The notes beneath the pieces are model-generated. The model searched no databases and was not told where the DNA came from. It worked only from the letters and a program-made list of their open reading frames with translations. Positions 4,259-18,497 of a stretch of DNA of 64,000 nt are shown here, piece by piece; the first letter of the stretch is position 1; each line of letters starts with the position of its first letter. Source of the stretch: an uncultured Clostridia bacterium (lineage in GTDB: Bacteria > Bacillota > Clostridia > Christensenellales > Borkfalkiaceae); NCBI GenBank assembly GCA_947631005.1, contig CANRJR010000001.1:96167-160166 (forward strand). Direction: 5' to 3'. The translations under genes and the position numbers were made by a program.

Positions 4259-4468
4259 AGGCTTCCAATTTACGGCGCGAGGAAAACCACGCTTTTCCGC
4301 TGCGCGACACAATTTGCCGCACACTTGCGGCTTATTGTCTTACAAAGCGAACGAGAGGATCAACCTAATTTAAGCGATAGTTGGTTTCCGTCACGAAATT
4401 TTCTTTTCGAAGACACGCGCGGCGCGAACGCGCAACGCGCACGGCACAAGAAAAGAAAATTTGTGAAC
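4259..4468. repeat. Multi-hairpin repeat element, short form, copy 2
   Basis: Carries the same conserved boxes as copy 1 (GCCGCACACTTGCGGC hairpin, TTATTGTCTTACAAAGCGAA linker), but the last stem is AAATTTTCTTTTC paired with GAAAAGAAAATTT around a longer loop. The element's terminal GTGAAC (4463-4468) directly touches the TGA stop codon (4471-4469) of the minus-strand ABC transporter gene. It may also act as that operon's 3' end, since no other terminator is visible there. Confidence 0.7.
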
Positions 4469-6421
4469 TCACTCCAACTCAAACGCGCCCGTATAGAGCT
4501 GGTAATACTTGCCTTTCATCTCGATGAGCTGGTCGTGCGTGCCGCGTTCGATGATCCTGCCCTGTTCGAGCACCATGATGACGTTGGAATTTTTGACGGT
4601 GGAGAGGCGGTGGGCGATGACGAACACCGTTCTCCCCTCCATGAGTTTATCCATGCCGCGTTGGACGATGGCTTCGGTGCGGGTATCGATGGAGGACGTC
4701 GCCTCGTCGAGGATCATGACGGGCGGGTCGGCGACCGCGGCGCGCGCGATGGAAAGGAGCTGCCGCTGTCCCTGCGAGAGGTTCGCGCCGTTCTGGTGCA
4801 ACATCGTGTTGTAGCCCTCGGGCAGGCGGGTGATGAAGTCGTCCGCGCCCGCGAGTTTTGCCGCCGCGATGCACTCCTCGTCCGTCGCGTCGAGCTTGCC
4901 GTAGCGGATGTTGTCCATGACCGTCCCCGTGAAGAGGTTGGTGTCCTGCAAGACCATGCCGATCGCGCGGCGAAGCTCCCCTTTCTTGATCTTACTCACG
5001 TTGATCCCGTCGTAGCGGATCTTGCCGTCCTGAATGTCGTAGAAGCGGGTGAGCAGGTTGGTGATGGTGGTTTTCCCCGCGCCCGTCGCGCCGACGAAGG
5101 CGACCTTTTGTCCGGGGCGGGCGTAGAGGGAGATGTCGTGCAAGACGATCTTATCGGGCGTATAGCCGAAGTCGACGTCGAACATTCTCACGTCGCCCGC
5201 GAGCCGTTCGTAGGTGACCGTGCCGTCGGCGTGGGGATGTTTCCACGCCCAAATGCCCGTCCGTTCGGCGCATTCCACGAGCTTTCCGTCCTCCTCGCGG
5301 GCGTTGACGAGCGTGACATACCCCTCGTCCTCCTCGGGCTTTTCGTCGATGAGGGCGAACAGACGCGCCGCGCCCGCAAGACCCATGATGACGGGGTTGA
5401 CCTGGTTGGAAACCTGGTTGATGTTATTGGAGAACTGCCGCGTCATTTGCAGGAAGGCGACGACGAGCGGGATGCTGAAATACGCGCCTGAACCGCCGAA
5501 CAGCAGCGACAGACCGACGTTCTGCGTATGGTGGATGATGAACACGCCGCCCAAAATGGCAACGAGCACGTAGAAGATATGTCCGAGGTTGCCGAGAATG
5601 GGCATGAGCATATTTGCGTACGCGTTCGCCTGCGTCGACTGTTTGCAGAGCGCGTCGTTCACGTTGTTGAAGTCGGCTTTCGCCGCCTCTTCATGACAGA
5701 ACACCTTGACGACTTTCTGACCGTTCATCATCTCTTCGACGAACCCCTCGGTGCGCGCGATGGACGTCTGCATGGCGAGGAAGAACTTTCCCGCGCCGCC
5801 GCCCACGATCTTGGTGACGAGGAAGATGACGACGATCCCGCCGAGCACGATCAGAAGCAGGTAGACGCTGTACCAGAGCATGATGCAGAACAGGGTGAAC
5901 ACCATGACGCCCGAGGTCAACAGTTGCGGCAACGATTGGGAAACGACCTGCCGCAGCGTATCGATGTCGTTGGTGTAATAGCTCATGATGTCGCCGTGGC
6001 TGTGCGTATCGAAGTAGCGGATGGGAAGATCCTGCATGCCGTCGAACATTGCCCCGCGCATCTGTTTGAGGTAGCCCTGCGTGATGATCGCCATGAGCTG
6101 TTTGTCGACCGCCCCCGCGACGAGGGAGACGACGTACAGCCCGATGAGGATGCACATGAAGCGGGTGATGTCCTTGCCGTAGACCGCCCAGCCGAGCGAA
6201 AGATCGGCGGTTTCGAGCACGGTGAAGATGCGTTCCATGAAAATGGACGGAAGCGCGCTGATGATCGCGTTGAATACGATGAGGATGAGCGTGAGCGTCA
6301 ACATCTTGGGATAGAAATGGAAAACCGATTTGATGACGCGCTTCATCGTCCCCTTGGGCGCGCCTTTGGGCGCGCCCATGCCGCCCCTGCCGCCTCTTCT
6401 GACATTCATATTCATTTTCAT
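4469..6421 (-). CDS. ABC exporter subunit with canonical nucleotide site (second gene of pair)
   Basis: A 650-residue fused membrane/ATPase half-transporter. The N-terminal half has six predicted transmembrane segments. The C-terminal ATPase has Walker A (GATGAGKTT), a signature changed to LSQGQ, and a canonical Walker B with catalytic Glu (VMILDEATSSID). Together with its partner this is the pattern of heterodimeric exporters such as TM287/288, BmrCD and LmrCD, which export drugs or lipids and have one active and one degenerate ATP site. A basic, glycine-rich N terminus precedes the first membrane helix. Its start overlaps the partner's stop (ATGA), with GGAGGTGACGAAGA before the ATG. The 3' end abuts a repeat element. 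Confidence 0.9.
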   Translation of the reverse strand: MKMNMNVRRGGRGGMGAPKGAPKGTMKRVIKSVFHFYPKMLTLTLILIVFNAIISALPSIFMERIFTVLETADLSLGWAVYGKDITRFMCILIGLYVVSLVAGAVDKQLMAIITQGYLKQMRGAMFDGMQDLPIRYFDTHSHGDIMSYYTNDIDTLRQVVSQSLPQLLTSGVMVFTLFCIMLWYSVYLLLIVLGGIVVIFLVTKIVGGGAGKFFLAMQTSIARTEGFVEEMMNGQKVVKVFCHEEAAKADFNNVNDALCKQSTQANAYANMLMPILGNLGHIFYVLVAILGGVFIIHHTQNVGLSLLFGGSGAYFSIPLVVAFLQMTRQFSNNINQVSNQVNPVIMGLAGAARLFALIDEKPEEDEGYVTLVNAREEDGKLVECAERTGIWAWKHPHADGTVTYERLAGDVRMFDVDFGYTPDKIVLHDISLYARPGQKVAFVGATGAGKTTITNLLTRFYDIQDGKIRYDGINVSKIKKGELRRAIGMVLQDTNLFTGTVMDNIRYGKLDATDEECIAAAKLAGADDFITRLPEGYNTMLHQNGANLSQGQRQLLSIARAAVADPPVMILDEATSSIDTRTEAIVQRGMDKLMEGRTVFVIAHRLSTVKNSNVIMVLEQGRIIERGTHDQLIEMKGKYYQLYTGAFELE

Positions 6422-10128: not shown

Positions 10129-10204
10129 GGGCCTTTAGCGCAGTGGTTAGAGCAGTCGGCTCATAACCGATCGGTCCGCGGTTCGAATCCGTGAAGGCCC
10201 ACCA
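10129..10204 (+). tRNA. tRNA-Met (CAT anticodon)
   Basis: A 76-base cloverleaf with acceptor GGGCCTT/AAGGCCC, anticodon loop CTCATAA and T loop GGTTCGAATCC. The CCA end is encoded. CAT could also be an Ile tRNA modified to lysidine; the overall sequence looks like elongator Met. First gene of the five-tRNA operon. Confidence 0.93.
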
Positions 10205-10244
10205 CATTGTCGGAAACGGCATTTGCTTTCGCGGTAAATCAAAT

Positions 10245-10321
10245 GGCCCAATAGCTCAGTTGGTTAGAGCGCCAGCCTGTCACGCTGGAGGTCGACGGTT
10301 CGAGCCCGTTTTGGGTCGCCA
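10245..10321 (+). tRNA. tRNA-Asp (GTC)
   Basis: 77 bases with acceptor GGCCCAA/TTGGGTC (one G-U pair), anticodon loop CTGTCAC, T loop GGTTCGAGCCC and encoded CCA. Confidence 0.95.
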
Positions 10322-10328
10322 AACAACA

Positions 10329-10372
10329 GGAGCTTCATTCGGCGGAATGAAGCTCCCGCCTTGCAAAAGGCG
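10329..10372 (+). other. Two stem-loops in the tRNA-Asp/tRNA-Phe spacer
   Basis: GGAGCTTCATTC-GGCG-GAATGAAGCTCC (12-bp perfect stem) followed at once by CGCCTT-GCAA-AAGGCG (6-bp stem with a GNRA-type loop). There is no T run, so transcription should continue. They may be processing or stabilising structures between tRNAs. Confidence 0.6.
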
Positions 10373-10376
10373 TCAT

Positions 10377-10452
10377 GCCTTGGTAGCTCAGATGGTAGAG
10401 CAACGGACTGAAAATCCGTCTGTCGGTGGTTCGATTCCGCCCCAAGGCACCA
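10377..10452 (+). tRNA. tRNA-Phe (GAA)
   Basis: 76 bases with acceptor GCCTTGG/CCAAGGC perfectly paired, anticodon loop CTGAAAA, T loop GGTTCGATTCC and encoded CCA. Confidence 0.95.
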
Positions 10453-10454
10453 CA

Positions 10455-10531
<77 letters not shown>

Positions 10532-10558
10532 CCGAACGACGTAAAAATGAATATATAT

Positions 10559-10643
10559 GGGCAGATTCCAGAGCGGCCAAATGGATCAGACTGTAAATCT
10601 GACGTCTACGACTTCGGTAGTTCGAATCTACCTCTGCCCACCA
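10559..10643 (+). tRNA. tRNA-Tyr (GTA)
   Basis: 85 bases with the long variable arm of class II tRNAs, anticodon loop CTGTAAA, acceptor GGGCAGA/TCTGCCC and encoded CCA. Last tRNA of the operon. Confidence 0.94.
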
Positions 10644-11026: not shown

Positions 11027-13069
11027 ATGAACTTATATCAAAGTAGCTTATTGAATCAAATAGAAACTTCCGTTGATAAAAAACGGGAAGAGTTTAAGTT
11101 CATTGATTTATTTGCTGGCATAGGTGGTATCAGGCTCGCTTTTGAAAGCCTTGGAGGAGTATGCGTTTTTTCTTCGGAGTGGGACGAAAATGCCTGTAAA
11201 ACATATAGAGCCAATTTCGGAGAGCAACCATATGGAGATATTACAAAAATAGACGCCAACACTATACCCGATTTTGATATATTGTTGGCGGGTTTTCCTT
11301 GTCAACCTTTCTCGATCGCAGGAAAAAAAGCGGGTTTTAATCATGAAACGCAAGGAACATTGTTTTTTGACGTTGAACGTATTTTAAGAGCAAAAAAACC
11401 AAAAGCCTTTTTACTTGAAAATGTTAAAAACTTGACGGCACACGACAAGGGTAATACTTTTCGAATTATTATTTCTCATTTGAAAGCATTGGGATATCAT
11501 GTGTACTATAAAGTGTTAAACGCTTTGGATTACGGTGTCCCCCAAAAACGCGAACGCATTATCATATGCGGTTTTATTGATAAAGTAGAGTTTGAATTTC
11601 CAAAACCGATTGATGAAAGGGATAGAAAATCTTTGAGTGACATTTTGGAGCGCGATGTTGATAAAAAGTATTATGTTAAGGCAAACATAAGGGATTCTCG
11701 CCTTGAACGCTTAAAAGATAAAAATTACCCGAAGCCTTATATATCTCACGAAAATATGGCTGGCTCTATCACTCCGCACCCTTACTGTTCTGCTTTACGT
11801 GCGGGAGCTTCTGCAAATTATATTTTAATCAATGATGAGCGCAGACCAACAGAAAGAGAGTTGTTGAGAATACAAGGTTTTCCCGACACATATAAAATCG
11901 TTGTAAACTATGGGCAAATAAAGCACCAAACAGGAAATAGCGTTGCTGTTCCCATGATAGCAGCGGTAGCGAAACAAATGTTAGACGCAATAAAAAAAGC
12001 AGGAGATTTTAATATGGATAAAAAACTCACCGAAGCAAAAAAAGCATTGGATTTAGTAATTAAGAAATCAAGAGTACATCTTTACAAACCCATTCAAATT
12101 GCCGAAATATTATACAGAGATAGAGTATTTCAAGATATTGATACTTCGAATCTGGAAACATATCGAATAAAAAGCAGGTCGTGGCGCGATACGATCAGTC
12201 TTGCATTATTGGGTAGAGTATGCACTTCAAGTATTAAATTCCAGGATGATATTTTTAATGCGATAACACCTGAACAAATAACCGTTTTAGCGGAAATAAA
12301 CAAGAGAGATGCGGGCGTCGTAGAAGCATATATTTATCAAAACTTTGCGAACAAGCATAATCAATTATCAACAGCTTTGGATAACTGTTTAAGGGCAACG
12401 CGCTTTACTTTCAACGTTAAAGAATTTATTGATATGTTTTGGGCGGAAGCGGGATTAAAGCGCAGTATAGATAAAATCTATGAGATCATAGTGTACTCCT
12501 TGTTTTCTACGCTTATCGATTCGTTGGAGTTAAAAGTCGAAATATCTATCAACGGAGAAAAAATGGATATGGTTAAAGAGTTTGAAGATTTTACACGCTC
12601 TGTAATGTGTATAGATTTTTCAAATCCTACTTCCATTCAAGATGCAAAAGTGTATCGCGTAGGTGTAACTAACGCCGCCGATAGGGGCTTGGATATGTAT
12701 GCAAACTGGGGTCCCGCTGTTCAAATTAAGCATTTGTCATTAGATACGGACCTTGCAGAGAGTATCGTTTCAGGTGTCAATAGCGATAAAATTATTATTG
12801 TTTGCAAATCAGCTGAAAAAGCCGTTATTCTATCACTTTTAACGCAAATCGGATGGAAAAATAAAATACAAAGCATTATCACCGAAAATGAACTATGCGC
12901 ATGGTATGAAAAAGCATTGCGCGGTAAATATGGTGAAATAATGGGCGATAAACTGTTAGGCACTTTAATTGAAGAGATCGCCGAAGAATTTCCGTCGGTA
13001 GATAACGGAGCGGATTGTCTTAAAGATAGACATTACGATTTGATCCACAATGAAGAATGGGGCTTATAA
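11027..13069 (+). CDS. Single-chain C5 cytosine methyltransferase fused to HaeII-type restriction endonuclease
   Basis: 680 residues. Residues 1-329 are a complete C5-MTase: motif I FIDLFAGIGG, motif IV GFPCQPFS with catalytic C92, ENV, QKRERIII, the RELLRIQGFP target region and QTGNSVAVPM. Residues 330-680 begin MDKKLTEAKKALDLVI and contain SRVHLYKPIQIAEILYRDRV, which I recognise as the HaeII endonuclease family (site RGCGCY). This is from memory, so medium confidence. Normally these are two proteins. Codon 330 is an ATG preceded by AGGAG and 8 bases (12001-12016), so a free endonuclease could also be made. The gene is markedly AT-rich against its surroundings, which suggests horizontal transfer. 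Expected role: restriction of foreign DNA with self-protection. Confidence 0.85.
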   Translation: MNLYQSSLLNQIETSVDKKREEFKFIDLFAGIGGIRLAFESLGGVCVFSSEWDENACKTYRANFGEQPYGDITKIDANTIPDFDILLAGFPCQPFSIAGKKAGFNHETQGTLFFDVERILRAKKPKAFLLENVKNLTAHDKGNTFRIIISHLKALGYHVYYKVLNALDYGVPQKRERIIICGFIDKVEFEFPKPIDERDRKSLSDILERDVDKKYYVKANIRDSRLERLKDKNYPKPYISHENMAGSITPHPYCSALRAGASANYILINDERRPTERELLRIQGFPDTYKIVVNYGQIKHQTGNSVAVPMIAAVAKQMLDAIKKAGDFNMDKKLTEAKKALDLVIKKSRVHLYKPIQIAEILYRDRVFQDIDTSNLETYRIKSRSWRDTISLALLGRVCTSSIKFQDDIFNAITPEQITVLAEINKRDAGVVEAYIYQNFANKHNQLSTALDNCLRATRFTFNVKEFIDMFWAEAGLKRSIDKIYEIIVYSLFSTLIDSLELKVEISINGEKMDMVKEFEDFTRSVMCIDFSNPTSIQDAKVYRVGVTNAADRGLDMYANWGPAVQIKHLSLDTDLAESIVSGVNSDKIIIVCKSAEKAVILSLLTQIGWKNKIQSIITENELCAWYEKALRGKYGEIMGDKLLGTLIEEIAEEFPSVDNGADCLKDRHYDLIHNEEWGL

Positions 13070-13160: not shown

Positions 13161-13187
13161 CACGCCGAGGCGAAATGCCTCGGCGTG
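13161..13187 (-). terminator. Terminator of the signal peptidase-TasA fusion gene
   Basis: CACGCCGAGGC-ATTTC-GCCTCGGCGTG then TTTCTC on the minus strand, 12 bases past the stop. 13070-13160 holds no recognised feature. Confidence 0.75.
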
Positions 13188-13198
13188 CCCCATGATTG

Positions 13199-14485
13199 CT
13201 ATGCCGCGTCGATCTTTTGCACGGCGTGGATGCAAAGGTCGAACAGGACAAACTTATTTTCCACTTTGTTGTTGTTCGTATCGTCGAGGAATTTCAGCGT
13301 AACGGTAAACGTCTCCGTTTCGCCGACGTCGACCGACCCGATCGTCGTATCGTCTCCCGACGCAAATCCGTCTACGAGCCGCACTTCGCGTTGTCCGCCC
13401 TCCTCCGACGAGACCGTCAACTGCAACATGGAAGCGAACGTCTGATCGCTCACGACCGCATTGTAAAAGGTTTCGAGGTAGTAGTAGAACGCCACGTCTC
13501 CGCCGTTCGCGATCCGCATTTCGGCAGTAAACGTGCTGCCGGGCGCGGCGACCGTCGTTGCGGTGATGCCGAAAATGCTGTCTTTCGTTCCCGTCGAAAA
13601 GTCCTTTACCGTATCGTCGACGACGGTCGTAAAGTTGCCGTCGCTGCCGATATTGTAGGTCGTGAGTTTCACCCGTTCGAGCGTCGCTTTGAGCGAGCCT
13701 GCCACGAGGTGGGTTTGGGTGGACACCGTTTCGTCGTACAGACCGTAAGACACCCCGATCGCAAGCGCAAAGCAACACAGCACAAGCGCAACAGCAAGTA
13801 CAATTATTTTATTTTTCATAGTTCCCTCTGCACGGAGGGACTTTTGCCCGAAGGGAAGCCTATCCTTATGTGTGAGCGTTCCCATGAGCATCGCCGCCGA
13901 CGCGACCATACACAAGGCGGCAAGACATTGCGGTTGCCGCAGGATACATAACAGAACGCCGAGGAAATGGCTCTTCGAGACAACTTTTCCTATCACAAAA
14001 TTCGGGCTCTGTGCGTCGGACGTGTCGACCGTCTGCGTCCCCACATGCGTCCCGTTGTCGCCGCAGAGCACGATGACGTACCCGCCGCCCCGCCGTTCAA
14101 TGCGCTGTATCCTGTGCGTGATTACCGTGTTCCCGCCGATGACCCGATAAGAAAACGTCAGAACGTCGCCCGCTTTGAGACTTGCATAGAACCTTTCGCG
14201 CGCCCGTTCCCGCCGCGGGACAAGTTTGATCAAGACCAAACTTTGGGCGGGAATGTCTTGTATGGCATAAGAGCTGACGTCGGTCTGCGGATTTTTTTCC
14301 ATCGACGCGGACATGACGAGCCGCGCCTCATAGCCGACGCACCCGCCGACAAGACAGATGATCAGAATGACGCCGCCTGCCGCAAGGACGAGCAGGGCGG
14401 TCAGGATACATTGGATGATGCCTCGGGCGCATTTGCGCCCGTCTTTTGTTTTTTTCATAGCACAAGGGACTTCCTCTTCTACCAA
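13199..14485 (-). CDS. SipW-like signal peptidase fused in frame to a TasA/camelysin-like secreted protein
   Basis: 428 codons with no internal stop. Residues 1-220 form an ER-type (S26B) signal peptidase like SipW: a membrane anchor at 28-50, catalytic Ser61 in MSASMEKN, His124 in VITHRI replacing the usual Lys, Asp143 in CGDNG, and a second membrane segment near 180-200. From Met223 a classical SipW substrate begins (MKNKIIVLAVALVLCCFALA signal, then ETVSTQTHLVAGSLKATL as in TasA/CalY). In known loci these are separate genes. GAGGG lies 4 bases before ATG 13819 (Met223), so separate re-initiation is possible. The start is TTG 14485 with GGAGGG upstream; ATG 14458 is the alternative. Such substrates form fibres or matrix at the cell surface. 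Confidence 0.8.
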   Translation of the reverse strand: MVEEEVPCAMKKTKDGRKCARGIIQCILTALLVLAAGGVILIICLVGGCVGYEARLVMSASMEKNPQTDVSSYAIQDIPAQSLVLIKLVPRRERARERFYASLKAGDVLTFSYRVIGGNTVITHRIQRIERRGGGYVIVLCGDNGTHVGTQTVDTSDAQSPNFVIGKVVSKSHFLGVLLCILRQPQCLAALCMVASAAMLMGTLTHKDRLPFGQKSLRAEGTMKNKIIVLAVALVLCCFALAIGVSYGLYDETVSTQTHLVAGSLKATLERVKLTTYNIGSDGNFTTVVDDTVKDFSTGTKDSIFGITATTVAAPGSTFTAEMRIANGGDVAFYYYLETFYNAVVSDQTFASMLQLTVSSEEGGQREVRLVDGFASGDDTTIGSVDVGETETFTVTLKFLDDTNNNKVENKFVLFDLCIHAVQKIDAA

Positions 14486-14761: not shown

Positions 14762-14789
14762 GTTATACTTGACAAGGGAGGTTTTCGCC

Positions 14790-15950
14790 TTGAAAAAGTT
14801 GACCTATGTATCTCTGTTCAGTAGCGCAGGAGTTGGATGCTACGGATTCAAAATGGAGGGATTCGACTGCATCGCAACGAATGAATTGTTGGCGCGGAGA
14901 TTAGACATCCAACGGTACAACGACAAGTGCAAATATCAAAGCGGTTATATTTTGGGCGATATTCTCTCCGATGACACCGTAAATAAGATCTTGGCTCAAA
15001 TAAATTTTTGGAAAGAGAATGAAGCGATCGAAGATGTTACGGCATTGATCGCCACCCCTCCATGTCAGGGAATGTCCGTTGCGAATCACAAAAAAAGAGA
15101 TGAATGCAAACGAAATTCGCTTGTGGTGTCGTCAATTTCCCTCATTAAGACCGTTCGCCCGCGGTTTTTTATTCTCGAAAATGTAAAAGCTTTTTTACAC
15201 ACGATCTGCACGGATTCCGATGGGCTCAATAAACCGATCGAAGAAGCGATCGATGTTAATTTAAGTCGAGAATATAATATTGCGCGTAAGATCCTGAATT
15301 TCAAAAATTACGGATCTGATTCGAGCCGCACAAGAACTTTGGTGATCGGCGTGAGAAAAGATCTTGCCATTTCTCCCGAGACACTATATCCGGAATACCG
15401 TACGGAAAGAACCTTGCGGGAAGTGATCGGTGATTTGCCGAGCTTGAAAATCATGGGAGAGATTTCGCCCGACGACATATATCATTCTTTCCGCCAATAT
15501 GCACCCGAAATGCGCAGGTGGATAGAACTTTTACACGAGGGGCAAAGCGCATTCGAAAATGCCGACCCCAGCCGATTGCCGCATTATTATCGAGAGGGAG
15601 AAAGAGTATATACCAAAAACGGGAATGCCGACAAATACACGCGTCAATATTGGGACAAGGTTGCCCCTTGCGTACATACACGAAATGATATTTTGGCAAG
15701 CCAGGGGACTGTACATCCCGTCGATGACCGAGTTTTTAGTATTCGTGAATTGATGCGCATGATGACCATCCCCGAAACGTTTCGATGGTCGCCGTATTCC
15801 TTATCGGAATTGAACGCTCTTGATCTTTCGGACAAAGAAAAATACCTTGCACAAAACGATACCACGATACGGCAGTCTATCGGGGAAGCTGTCCCTACGG
15901 AAATTTTCAGGCAAATCGCACACAAAATCAAAGCGATCGAAAGTAAATGA
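14790..15950 (+). CDS. C5 cytosine DNA methyltransferase of a type IIS-like R-M system
   Basis: 386 residues from TTG 14790, which has GGGAGG 8 bases upstream; the track start at 14769 is another TTG inside the leader. C5-MTase motifs: LFSSAGVGCYGF (I), ATPPCQGMS (IV, catalytic Cys), ENV (VI), RTRTLVIGV (VIII), SIRELMRMMTIP (IX) and QSIGEAVP (X). It methylates one strand of the recognition site. First gene of a three-gene operon; its stop overlaps the next ATG (ATGA). Lower GC than the flanking chromosome. Confidence 0.9.
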   Translation: MKKLTYVSLFSSAGVGCYGFKMEGFDCIATNELLARRLDIQRYNDKCKYQSGYILGDILSDDTVNKILAQINFWKENEAIEDVTALIATPPCQGMSVANHKKRDECKRNSLVVSSISLIKTVRPRFFILENVKAFLHTICTDSDGLNKPIEEAIDVNLSREYNIARKILNFKNYGSDSSRTRTLVIGVRKDLAISPETLYPEYRTERTLREVIGDLPSLKIMGEISPDDIYHSFRQYAPEMRRWIELLHEGQSAFENADPSRLPHYYREGERVYTKNGNADKYTRQYWDKVAPCVHTRNDILASQGTVHPVDDRVFSIRELMRMMTIPETFRWSPYSLSELNALDLSDKEKYLAQNDTTIRQSIGEAVPTEIFRQIAHKIKAIESK

Positions 15951-17266
15951 ACCTTCAGGATTTTTTGCGAAAAGAAAAAATCGAAAGTTTGGAACAACTT
16001 GTTACCGCTATCAAGGAACGTGGCAAGTCGTTTCAGCCCGAGTTCGTGTATCAAGCCGCAGAATATCTGAATCCCAACCGTGATACGACTGCCGCATTTT
16101 ATACCGACACCGCAATATGTCAATATATCATAAAAGAATTGCCGAGTTTTTCAGACAAGGATCATTTACGCATCTTGGAACCGTCCGTCGGCGCAGGCAA
16201 TTTTATTCCGTTTATAGCGGAAAAATATAAAGATAAAGCGATTCTCGAACTGCATTTAATTGATATCGACGAAAACGAATTAAAAATTGCAGAACTGATT
16301 TTTGAAACTTTCTACCGAGACAAATATCCCAATCTCTCGATAACTTATATTCATGACGATTACTTGAAATTGCCTCTTTCCGACAGAAAATTCGATTTGG
16401 TCATAGGGAATCCCCCCTATGCAAAGGTGAAAGAGACCCCTTTGCTCAAAATATATCGTAAATCCAGCCAAATAACAAAAAGTTCGAACCTGTTTGTATG
16501 GTTTCTCGAAAAGGCTATGCATGATGGCGAGTGGGTCTCGTTCATCGTCCCAAAAAGTGTACTGAATGCCCCCGAATATTCGGAAATCCGTTCTCAACTG
16601 AAACTTTGTCACATAGCTTCCATTTTAGATTTCGGTGAATATGGTTTCAAAGGGGTAAAGATCGAAACCGTCAATTTACTGTTTACTCGCAATAGCTCCC
16701 CCTCTTTGACCCATATTGTTTCTATAACACAGCACATCAATATACGGCAAAGTCAGACGTATATTACAGATCCTCAATATCCTGTTTGGCTGTTATATCG
16801 GAACGCTGATTTCGATTCGTTTGCCAACACTTTGATTTTGGGTATCTTTGATGTTTTCCGTGATAGGCAAATTGTAGAAACGATGGTTTCGCCGAAGGGA
16901 AATTATCGCGTATTAAAATCGAGAAATATCGGATCGAACCGCATTATAGATATTGCGGGCTACGATGCCTATATGAATGATATATCCTCGCTCGCGGTAT
17001 CTAAATTTCTAAACCGCGATAATGTTGTTTTAATACCGAATCTATCCTATTCTCCGAGGGCGTGTTTCCTTCCGCGCAATACGATTGCGAACGGCTCGGT
17101 CGCGCTTTTGACCGTAACCGATCGCGATATCGTCATCACGGAACAGGATTTAGAGTTGTTCTCCTCGAAAGAATTCATCATGTATTATAGAATTGCCCGA
17201 AACTATGGGACACGCTCTTTGAATATAGATCATAATTCCGTCTATTTCTTCGGAATCAAGAGGTGA
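15947..17266 (+). CDS. N6-adenine DNA methyltransferase
   Basis: 439 residues. SAM-binding motif I is LEPSVGAGNFI and the catalytic motif IV is DLVIGNPPYAKVK, the NPPY of N6-adenine methylases (gamma-like order, with the target recognition region C-terminal). Paired with a C5 enzyme of different chemistry this fits an asymmetric recognition site whose strands are modified separately, as in the MnlI and HphI systems. ATGA overlap with the C5 gene and only 4 bases to the endonuclease gene, so the three are co-translated. Confidence 0.9.
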   Translation: MNLQDFLRKEKIESLEQLVTAIKERGKSFQPEFVYQAAEYLNPNRDTTAAFYTDTAICQYIIKELPSFSDKDHLRILEPSVGAGNFIPFIAEKYKDKAILELHLIDIDENELKIAELIFETFYRDKYPNLSITYIHDDYLKLPLSDRKFDLVIGNPPYAKVKETPLLKIYRKSSQITKSSNLFVWFLEKAMHDGEWVSFIVPKSVLNAPEYSEIRSQLKLCHIASILDFGEYGFKGVKIETVNLLFTRNSSPSLTHIVSITQHINIRQSQTYITDPQYPVWLLYRNADFDSFANTLILGIFDVFRDRQIVETMVSPKGNYRVLKSRNIGSNRIIDIAGYDAYMNDISSLAVSKFLNRDNVVLIPNLSYSPRACFLPRNTIANGSVALLTVTDRDIVITEQDLELFSSKEFIMYYRIARNYGTRSLNIDHNSVYFFGIKR

Positions 17267-17270
17267 AACG

Positions 17271-18497
17271 ATGACAGAACAAGAAATTGCGAATTTTTTA
17301 TCCAATCATAATTATGATATCAGAATCCACCGCAACGCTCGGTGGATAGATCAAAAATGCACCCCCGATGTTTTGGCTATTGTCGCGGACTGCATTCTCA
17401 ATTATGTCGGGCAAACCGAGGACAACGCCATAGAATTTTCCACACAAAATATTTGGCTTTCTGAATATACGATCCAAAATGTTCATGACATATTCCGAAA
17501 AGTCGCTGTCGACAACAACGCCGCGATCAGAGAATATGATAAATTCTTCGGGCAACCGTTAAAATTATTCTCCTATGCGGGAATATTGAGCGAACAGAAA
17601 GTCGGAAAGGAAAATAGATATTCCATTGTCCACTTCCCGCTGTTGGAATTCATTGCCGCAAGAGAAAGAAACGCTTTGTTGTTCCTGACAAAGTACATAA
17701 CAAAAGTGATTGACGATTCCGGGCTTACGAATGACTTTCGGGAATTTTTTACGCAACAAACGAAACAGGCATATGATACCATCAAGAACACTTTCTTTCG
17801 GTTCACGGTCGCAAATACATCGATCGGCAATAAAGGCTCTCCCGGGCAAACGGAGTGCGGCAGAATCTTTACAAAGATAATCAATGTGCTTGCTTTTCAT
17901 CTGAATAAGCGCGGAAGCGAAAAGGGTCGGCTCTCGGCGCACCCGATCACTTACGATATGTTGATGTATAACCGGGATAATTTCAGAGATGTTTACGCGG
18001 AAAAGCCAAAGAATATCTCTCGCAAAGAATATTTGGAAAATCATCCGCTCGCGATCAATGAGGCATATTATAAGTATCTTTCAACAAGGGCAAAGAGAAG
18101 ATTGCGCATTTACAATGATCAATACCGTTACGGAGCAAGTGAAATCGCTGGCGATCCCGAACACGCGACGCACATTCATCATATATTCCCCGCAAGTGAC
18201 TTTCCGGAAATATCTTTTTACATGGAAAATCTGATTGCCCTTACTCCGAATCAACACTTGAATAACGCTCATCCGGATGGAAGAACTGCCACCATCAATT
18301 TGGATTATCAACGCGTGTGTTTATTGACCAAAGCAGATGTAATTGAAGATAACATTGCGCATTCGGAGGAGATCCTTTATTGCTTTCATGATTTTCTCTA
18401 TGTGCTCTCGATCGGCTTTGACGAAGATTCGTTCCTCGAAGTCGAGGACGGAGACTATTTGGGTATCAAGACAAAAATAGAATTGGCATATGAATGA
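17271..18497 (+). CDS. HNH-type restriction endonuclease
   Basis: 408 residues. The C-terminal third contains an HNH (beta-beta-alpha metal) nuclease core, THIHHIFPASDFPEIS followed by ENLIALTPNQHLNNAHP. The N-terminal part has no motif I recognise and probably reads the DNA site. Its position as third gene after a C5 and an N6 methylase makes it the restriction enzyme of a type IIS-like system. GAGGTGAAACG precedes the ATG. A terminator in the right 59-bp repeat ends the operon 40 bases on. The recognition sequence cannot be deduced. Confidence 0.82.
   Translation: MTEQEIANFLSNHNYDIRIHRNARWIDQKCTPDVLAIVADCILNYVGQTEDNAIEFSTQNIWLSEYTIQNVHDIFRKVAVDNNAAIREYDKFFGQPLKLFSYAGILSEQKVGKENRYSIVHFPLLEFIAARERNALLFLTKYITKVIDDSGLTNDFREFFTQQTKQAYDTIKNTFFRFTVANTSIGNKGSPGQTECGRIFTKIINVLAFHLNKRGSEKGRLSAHPITYDMLMYNRDNFRDVYAEKPKNISRKEYLENHPLAINEAYYKYLSTRAKRRLRIYNDQYRYGASEIAGDPEHATHIHHIFPASDFPEISFYMENLIALTPNQHLNNAHPDGRTATINLDYQRVCLLTKADVIEDNIAHSEEILYCFHDFLYVLSIGFDEDSFLEVEDGDYLGIKTKIELAYE

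What the first reader, a model, noticed from the sequence alone, without database searches (positions are those of the whole stretch)
13199..14485. Signal peptidase and its TasA-like substrate encoded as one open frame
A SipW-type peptidase (Ser61, His124, Asp143) continues without a stop into a camelysin/TasA-like preprotein with its own signal peptide from Met223. A single chain could cut itself and release the matrix protein at 1:1 ratio. GAGGG before the internal ATG allows an alternative, coupled re-initiation. I know sipW and tasA only as separate genes.
Basis: partly seen in the sequence, partly recalled or inferred. Interest (0 to 1): 0.8.

Follow-up and report, generated by a model that had tools for sequence, protein, structure and literature searches.

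The report
Signal peptidase fused to its substrate
In a genus of uncultured rabbit-gut Clostridia, the enzyme that trims a fibre-forming surface protein is encoded in one unbroken frame with that protein; 17 species keep the fused frame, yet also keep a separate internal start, so the gene probably makes both a fusion and the free fibre protein.

Summary
On the minus strand, 14458→13199 is one 419-codon frame: an ER-type (SipW-like) signal peptidase followed without a stop by a TasA-like preprotein. It is not a sequencing error. Seventeen species of the genus carry the same open frame (46–79% identity), and nine carry the pair as two adjacent or overlapping genes. The tree needs at least three, most simply four, switches between states.

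One junction element is kept in all 26 species, whatever the frame: a Shine-Dalgarno sequence inside a small hairpin, directly before the TasA ATG. Synonymous variation in the fused clade is unusually low here, as it is at the SipW start.

My reading is a two-product gene. Ribosomes from the SipW start make a three-TM SipW–TasA fusion and open the hairpin, so that free pre-TasA is also made. SipW cleaves both after SYG. Because SipW cuts TasA off in any case, the stop codon is nearly dispensable. A neutral simulation does not reject drift (P = 0.17), so selection for the fusion itself is unproven. No SipW–TasA fusion was found outside the genus. All of this is computational; no protein data exist.

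The parts
13199..14458 (-). single open frame encoding SipW-like signal peptidase + TasA-like preprotein (419 aa; TTG at 14485 would add 9 aa)
   Evidence: one frame in 17 species
13820..14458 (-). ER-type (S26B, SipW-like) signal peptidase half, residues 1-213; Ser52 at 14305-14303, His115 at 14116-14114, Asp134 at 14059-14057
   Evidence: TIGR02228 6e-9 and NF046067 1.4e-5; all 12 homologues scanned match both models; catalytic residues invariant in 17 fused proteins
14339..14434 (-). first hydrophobic segment (about residues 9-40)
   Evidence: hydropathy
13871..13933 (-). second hydrophobic segment (about residues 176-196), C-terminal anchor of the peptidase
   Evidence: hydropathy
13820..13870 (-). 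junction linker (residues 197-213), net positive, predicted cytoplasmic; length varies in whole codons between fused species
13823..13840 (-). SD hairpin TCCCTC-cgtgca-GAGGGA directly before the internal ATG; its form is kept in fused, overlapping and separate arrangements
   Evidence: low synonymous variation
13817..13819 (-). internal ATG (Met214), start of pre-TasA; invariant in 26 of 26 species
13742..13819 (-). TasA-like signal peptide (residues 214-239), predicted cut SYG|LYDE, third hydrophobic segment
   Evidence: alignment by eye to TWA|AFND of B. subtilis TasA
13202..13741 (-). mature TasA-like fibre protein, beta-sandwich
   Evidence: AlphaFold model; top PDB match TasA fibre 8AUR
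13161..13187 (-). 11-bp inverted repeat with 5-nt loop just after the stop codon, possible transcription end
   Evidence: read; not reported by the terminator scan, which requires a T run

Best explanation
This is a sipW-tasA matrix-fibre module whose intergenic stop has been lost by a change of frame, leaving a gene that most likely makes two products. Ribosomes starting at the SipW ATG make a three-pass membrane protein: N-in, TM1, peptidase outside, TM2, short positive cytoplasmic linker, TasA signal helix, TasA outside. While passing the junction they unfold the hairpin that hides the TasA Shine-Dalgarno sequence, so other ribosomes start at Met214 and make free pre-TasA. The peptidase cuts both forms after SYG, in cis or in trans, and releases the N-terminal strand that TasA subunits need to polymerise. 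Because the peptidase removes TasA anyway, mature TasA is the same with or without a stop, and the frame at the junction can switch during evolution. Shown: frame, conservation, repeated switching, hairpin and start conservation, fold similarity. Inferred: expression, two products, hairpin-mediated coupling, cleavage, polymerisation.
For: Seventeen species have one frame and nine have two genes. The tree forces at least 3 and most simply needs 4 changes: three gains (main clade, G047, G009+G128) and one loss (G126). Fused and separate forms share genomic neighbours in two subclades. The sipW frame meets tasA in every way: fused (17), 11-nt overlap (5), ATGA overlap (1), stop inside the hairpin (3). 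In all 26, sipW translation reaches the hairpin, and SD plus ATG are kept. In the fused clade synonymous pS is 0.116 over the hairpin codons against about 0.38 in the peptidase domain and mature TasA. Windows there rank 12th to 21st lowest of 421, and the SipW start holds most of the lowest ranks. The predicted cut SYG|LYDE has aromatic P2 and P2', like TWA|AFND of TasA, which LepB handles badly and SipW cuts (PMC10269814). P2 is aromatic in 28 of 28 homologues. Three hydrophobic segments and a net positive linker are found in all 17. TasA fibres assemble through an extended N-terminal strand (PMC9674648). RNA unfolding is a proposed coupling mechanism (PMC12548453).
Against: No transcript, ribosome or protein data. 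Single hairpins are modest: reshuffled flanks do as well in 0 to 22% of cases, and 5 of 25 control starts in the window score in the same range. In a few sequences the lowest-energy fold is a different one. The full-length AlphaFold model is poor (pLDDT 63.9), so it does not show cis cleavage. Two other ER-type peptidases and one P-type peptidase are present in the genome and could do the cutting.
Confidence: 0.58

Rival explanations
1. The fusion is the selected form: a self-processing polyprotein in which each peptidase cuts its own TasA, fixing enzyme and substrate together in the membrane.
For: Frame open in 14 main-clade species with no stop, and three linker indels there are all whole codons. 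Topology places TM2 and the TasA signal helix as a hairpin with the cut site near the peptidase (inference). Three separate gains of fusion.
Against: Neutral simulation gives P = 0.17 for no stop in 14 tips. Linker dN/dS is about 0.7 on only ten codons. One species reverted (G126). A conserved internal SD and ATG are not needed for a pure polyprotein.
Confidence: 0.2
2. The fused frame is a neutral accident: nearly all TasA comes from the internal start, and the fusion is a minor harmless by-product.
For: All junction frames occur. Neutral retention is not rejected. The strongest junction conservation is at the nucleotide level, around SD and ATG.
Against: Every ribosome that starts at SipW and reads on must make the fusion, so it cannot be rarer than SipW itself. 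17 of 26 species are fused.
Confidence: 0.17
3. Sequencing or assembly error hiding a stop.
For: The related genomes with names are metagenome assemblies.
Against: Same open frame in 17 separately assembled species with whole-codon length differences.
Confidence: 0.01
4. The N half is an inactive peptidase used only as a membrane anchor for TasA.
For: Scores stay below the curated family cut-offs.
Against: Ser52, His115 and Asp134 invariant in all 17 fused proteins; peptidase half dN/dS 0.31.
Confidence: 0.04

Closest known systems
tapA-sipW-tasA operon of Bacillus subtilis
   Same: ER-type peptidase with a dedicated TasA substrate; aromatic P2 and P2' at the cut site; TasA-fibre fold
   Different: Separate genes there; no third gene such as tapA is conserved beside this pair; here one frame, or overlapping genes, with an SD hairpin; sequence too far for the curated SipW cut-off
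Camelysin/CalY-TasA family, PF12389
   Same: 7 of 28 homologues match, best 7e-7
   Different: The window protein itself gives no hit; one TasA of this kind in the genome, inside the fusion
BsaA-SipW systems of Clostridium perfringens (PMC7395162; TIGR04090)
   Same: Clostridial SipW-dependent matrix protein
   Different: TIGR04090 hit only weakly by 2 of 28 homologues (best E 0.17)
Translationally coupled overlapping genes (reviewed in PMC12548453)
   Same: SD hidden in a hairpin that the upstream frame runs into; ATGA and 11-nt overlaps in relatives
   Different: In the fused species no ribosome terminates at the junction, so only the RNA-unfolding route is left

Membership tests
ER-type signal peptidase (S26B; SipW / TIGR02228) | Ser-His-Asp catalytic residues in S-x-S-M, THR and GDN-like motifs | tested here: met
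   Ser52, His115, Asp134 invariant in 17 fused proteins
ER-type signal peptidase (S26B; SipW / TIGR02228) | score above the curated cut-off | tested here: not met
   35.9 bits against 51.85 for TIGR02228; 24.8 against 190 for NF046067; E-values 6e-9 and 1.4e-5; so described as SipW-like, not filed as the SipW equivalog
ER-type signal peptidase (S26B; SipW / TIGR02228) | cleaves TasA-type signal peptides | not testable with these tools
   needs an assay
TasA/camelysin (PF12389) | sequence match to the family | tested here: inconclusive
   no hit for the window protein, 7 of 28 homologues hit, best 7e-7
TasA/camelysin (PF12389) | TasA fold | tested here: met
   8AUR is the best PDB match, E 3e-5, probability 1.00, though TM-scores are 0.42-0.47
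TasA/camelysin (PF12389) | SipW-type signal peptide with aromatic residues at the cut | tested here: met
   P2 aromatic in 28 of 28, P2' in 25 of 28 (read; reference motif)
TasA/camelysin (PF12389) | forms fibres by donor-strand exchange | not testable with these tools
   needs electron microscopy
Translationally coupled gene pair | downstream SD sequestered in a hairpin that the upstream frame enters | tested here: met
   26 of 26 species by stem search, with competing folds in a few
Translationally coupled gene pair | downstream translation depends on upstream translation | not testable with these tools
   needs reporter fusions

The most novel reading that the evidence does not exclude
A self-processing polyprotein: a membrane peptidase that is synthesised joined to its own secreted fibre subunit, cuts itself free from it during export, and is maintained by selection, having arisen at least three times in one genus.
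Probability: 0.22. Interest if true: 0.75.

Novelty: new variant of a known kind. Interest (0 to 1): 0.58.

Why it matters
The parts are known, but I found no earlier report or other example of a SipW-type peptidase joined to TasA in one frame, and here the joined form is kept over many species and has switched repeatedly. It suggests why a stop codon between a signal peptidase and its substrate may be nearly dispensable: the enzyme undoes the fusion. The natural series (fused, ATGA overlap, 11-nt overlap, stop inside the hairpin), with the same hairpin and ATG, is also a ready-made test of whether translational coupling works by RNA unfolding or by re-initiation, since the fused members cannot re-initiate after termination.

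Tried and rejected
Sequencing error: rejected by 17 species. Fusion of the more distant homologue in G105 (reported as a 521-aa frame): rejected, a TAG lies between the genes. SipW-TasA fusions elsewhere: 396 genomes of the order gave none outside the genus. TIGR02228 scans of 391 class and 399 phylum genomes gave many 330-740 aa frames; 20 were read and none carries a recognisable TasA-like part. Their match lists were cut off, so rarer cases may be missed. Plasmid and phage collections: no match. Conserved neighbours that would reveal a larger operon: only subclade synteny. Strong selection on the linker peptide: not shown. Programmed frameshifting at the A-run after the ATG was considered and not tested. 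PDB sequence search for the TasA half: none; for the peptidase half only weak SEC11 matches, E 0.02. Literature searches found no fused sipW-tasA, but the library lacks most subscription journals.

Full report
What is there. The finding lies on the minus strand. From ATG 14458 to TAG 13201-13199 there is one frame of 419 codons. Residues 1-213 are a SipW-like, ER-type signal peptidase: TIGR02228 6e-9, NF046067 1.4e-5, both below the curated cut-offs, with Ser52, His115 and Asp134 invariant in 17 fused proteins. Residues 214-419 are a preprotein with its own signal peptide. Seven of 28 homologues match camelysin/TasA PF12389. An AlphaFold model (mean pLDDT 82.8) finds the B. subtilis TasA fibre 8AUR first in the PDB, E 3e-5, probability 1.00, although TM-scores are only 0.42-0.47. 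The predicted cut, SYG|LYDE, has aromatic residues at P2 and P2' like TWA|AFND of TasA (PMC10269814).

Is it real. Searching the 103 held genomes of the genus with the whole protein, 17 species carry both halves in one open frame and nine carry the same pair as two adjacent or overlapping genes. The named contigs of these relatives are all rabbit-gut metagenome assemblies (isolates named Lapin) labelled uncultured Clostridia. A sequencing error is ruled out. In two subclades the fused and the split forms share genomic neighbours, so they are orthologous states.

How the states changed. A tree of the concatenated proteins without the linker needs four changes of state, and well supported branches force at least three. 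The simplest history is three gains of the fusion (the window's clade of 14 fused species, G047, and G009 with G128) and one loss (G126).

The junction. In every one of 26 species, whatever the frame, the TasA ATG is preceded by a strong SD that can form the 3' arm of a small hairpin (CCCTCC...GGAGGG type), and the sipW frame runs into that hairpin. sipW then either continues in frame (17 species), stops 11 nt into tasA (5), stops at ATGA (1), or stops inside the hairpin (3). The 5' arm is kept although it is read in different frames, so its conservation is not explained by the SLRAEG peptide. Within the 14 fused main-clade species, synonymous difference over the hairpin codons is 0.116 against 0.385 in the peptidase domain and 0.384 in mature TasA. 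In a sliding scan of 421 windows the junction windows rank 12th to 21st lowest, and most of the lowest belong to the SipW start itself. The internal start thus bears the mark of a real start. Caveats: each hairpin alone is not exceptional (0 to 22% of shuffles do as well, and some control starts score equally), and in a few sequences a competing fold has lower energy.

Mechanism. Three hydrophobic segments and a net positive linker occur in all 17 fused proteins. This fits N-in, peptidase out, linker in, TasA out, with the TasA signal helix next to the peptidase's second TM helix. I infer that ribosomes from the SipW start make the fusion and unfold the hairpin, that free pre-TasA is made from Met214 as well, and that the peptidase cuts both. 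[quoted passage not shown] In the fused state no ribosome terminates at the junction, so coupling would have to be by RNA unfolding, one of the two models in the review PMC12548453. The genome holds two further ER-type peptidases and a P-type one, so cleavage by the fused peptidase is likely but not certain. It holds only this one TasA of its kind.

Is the fusion selected. A simulation of neutral change of ten linker codons along the clade's tree leaves all 14 tips free of stops in 17% of runs at the measured synonymous divergence. Three in-frame indels against one frame-breaking event are also compatible with chance. Linker dN/dS is about 0.7. I therefore treat the fused frame as tolerated, possibly useful, and not shown to be selected. 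A simple reason for tolerance is that the peptidase removes TasA from itself.

Distribution and novelty. No fused pair was found outside the genus in 396 genomes of the order. Scans with TIGR02228 over 391 genomes of the class and 399 of the phylum gave many long frames; the 20 read carry other sequence, not a recognisable TasA. No match in plasmids or phages. No paper found describes a sipW-tasA fusion. I rate it a new variant of a known kind.

Noticed in passing
window 11027-13069 (+): A 680-aa frame joins a C5 cytosine methyltransferase (PF00145) to a HaeII-type restriction endonuclease (PF09554, 1e-133): another pair I would expect as separate genes, in one frame.
   Followed up: no
window 14769-18497 (+): A C5 methyltransferase, an Eco57I-like N6 methyltransferase and a third unassigned gene in tandem. 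With the HaeII-type frame they flank the sipW-tasA gene, near a tRNA cluster at 10129-10643 that also lies downstream of the fused gene in L045.
   Followed up: partly
residues 228-229 of the frame (window 13777-13772): Two adjacent cysteines in the middle of the TasA signal helix are invariant in all 28 homologues; it does not look like a lipobox; no explanation.
   Followed up: no
L116 (G783:C14:129000-132500): An ER-type signal peptidase continues into a sortase-B-like domain (judged by eye from its sequence) in one 435-aa frame.
   Followed up: no
L115, L118-L122: ER-type signal peptidases with a long N-terminal extension that looks by eye like a response-regulator receiver domain, 350-670 aa.
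   Followed up: no
L065 (G031) 4374-5006: The separate SipW of this species lacks the conserved Asp of the GDN motif (LGANGE), so it may be inactive or use another residue.
   Followed up: no
L087 (G000:C35:8500-15500): A second cluster in the same genome: an ER-type peptidase next to two proteins that look like SipW-dependent substrates.
   Followed up: partly
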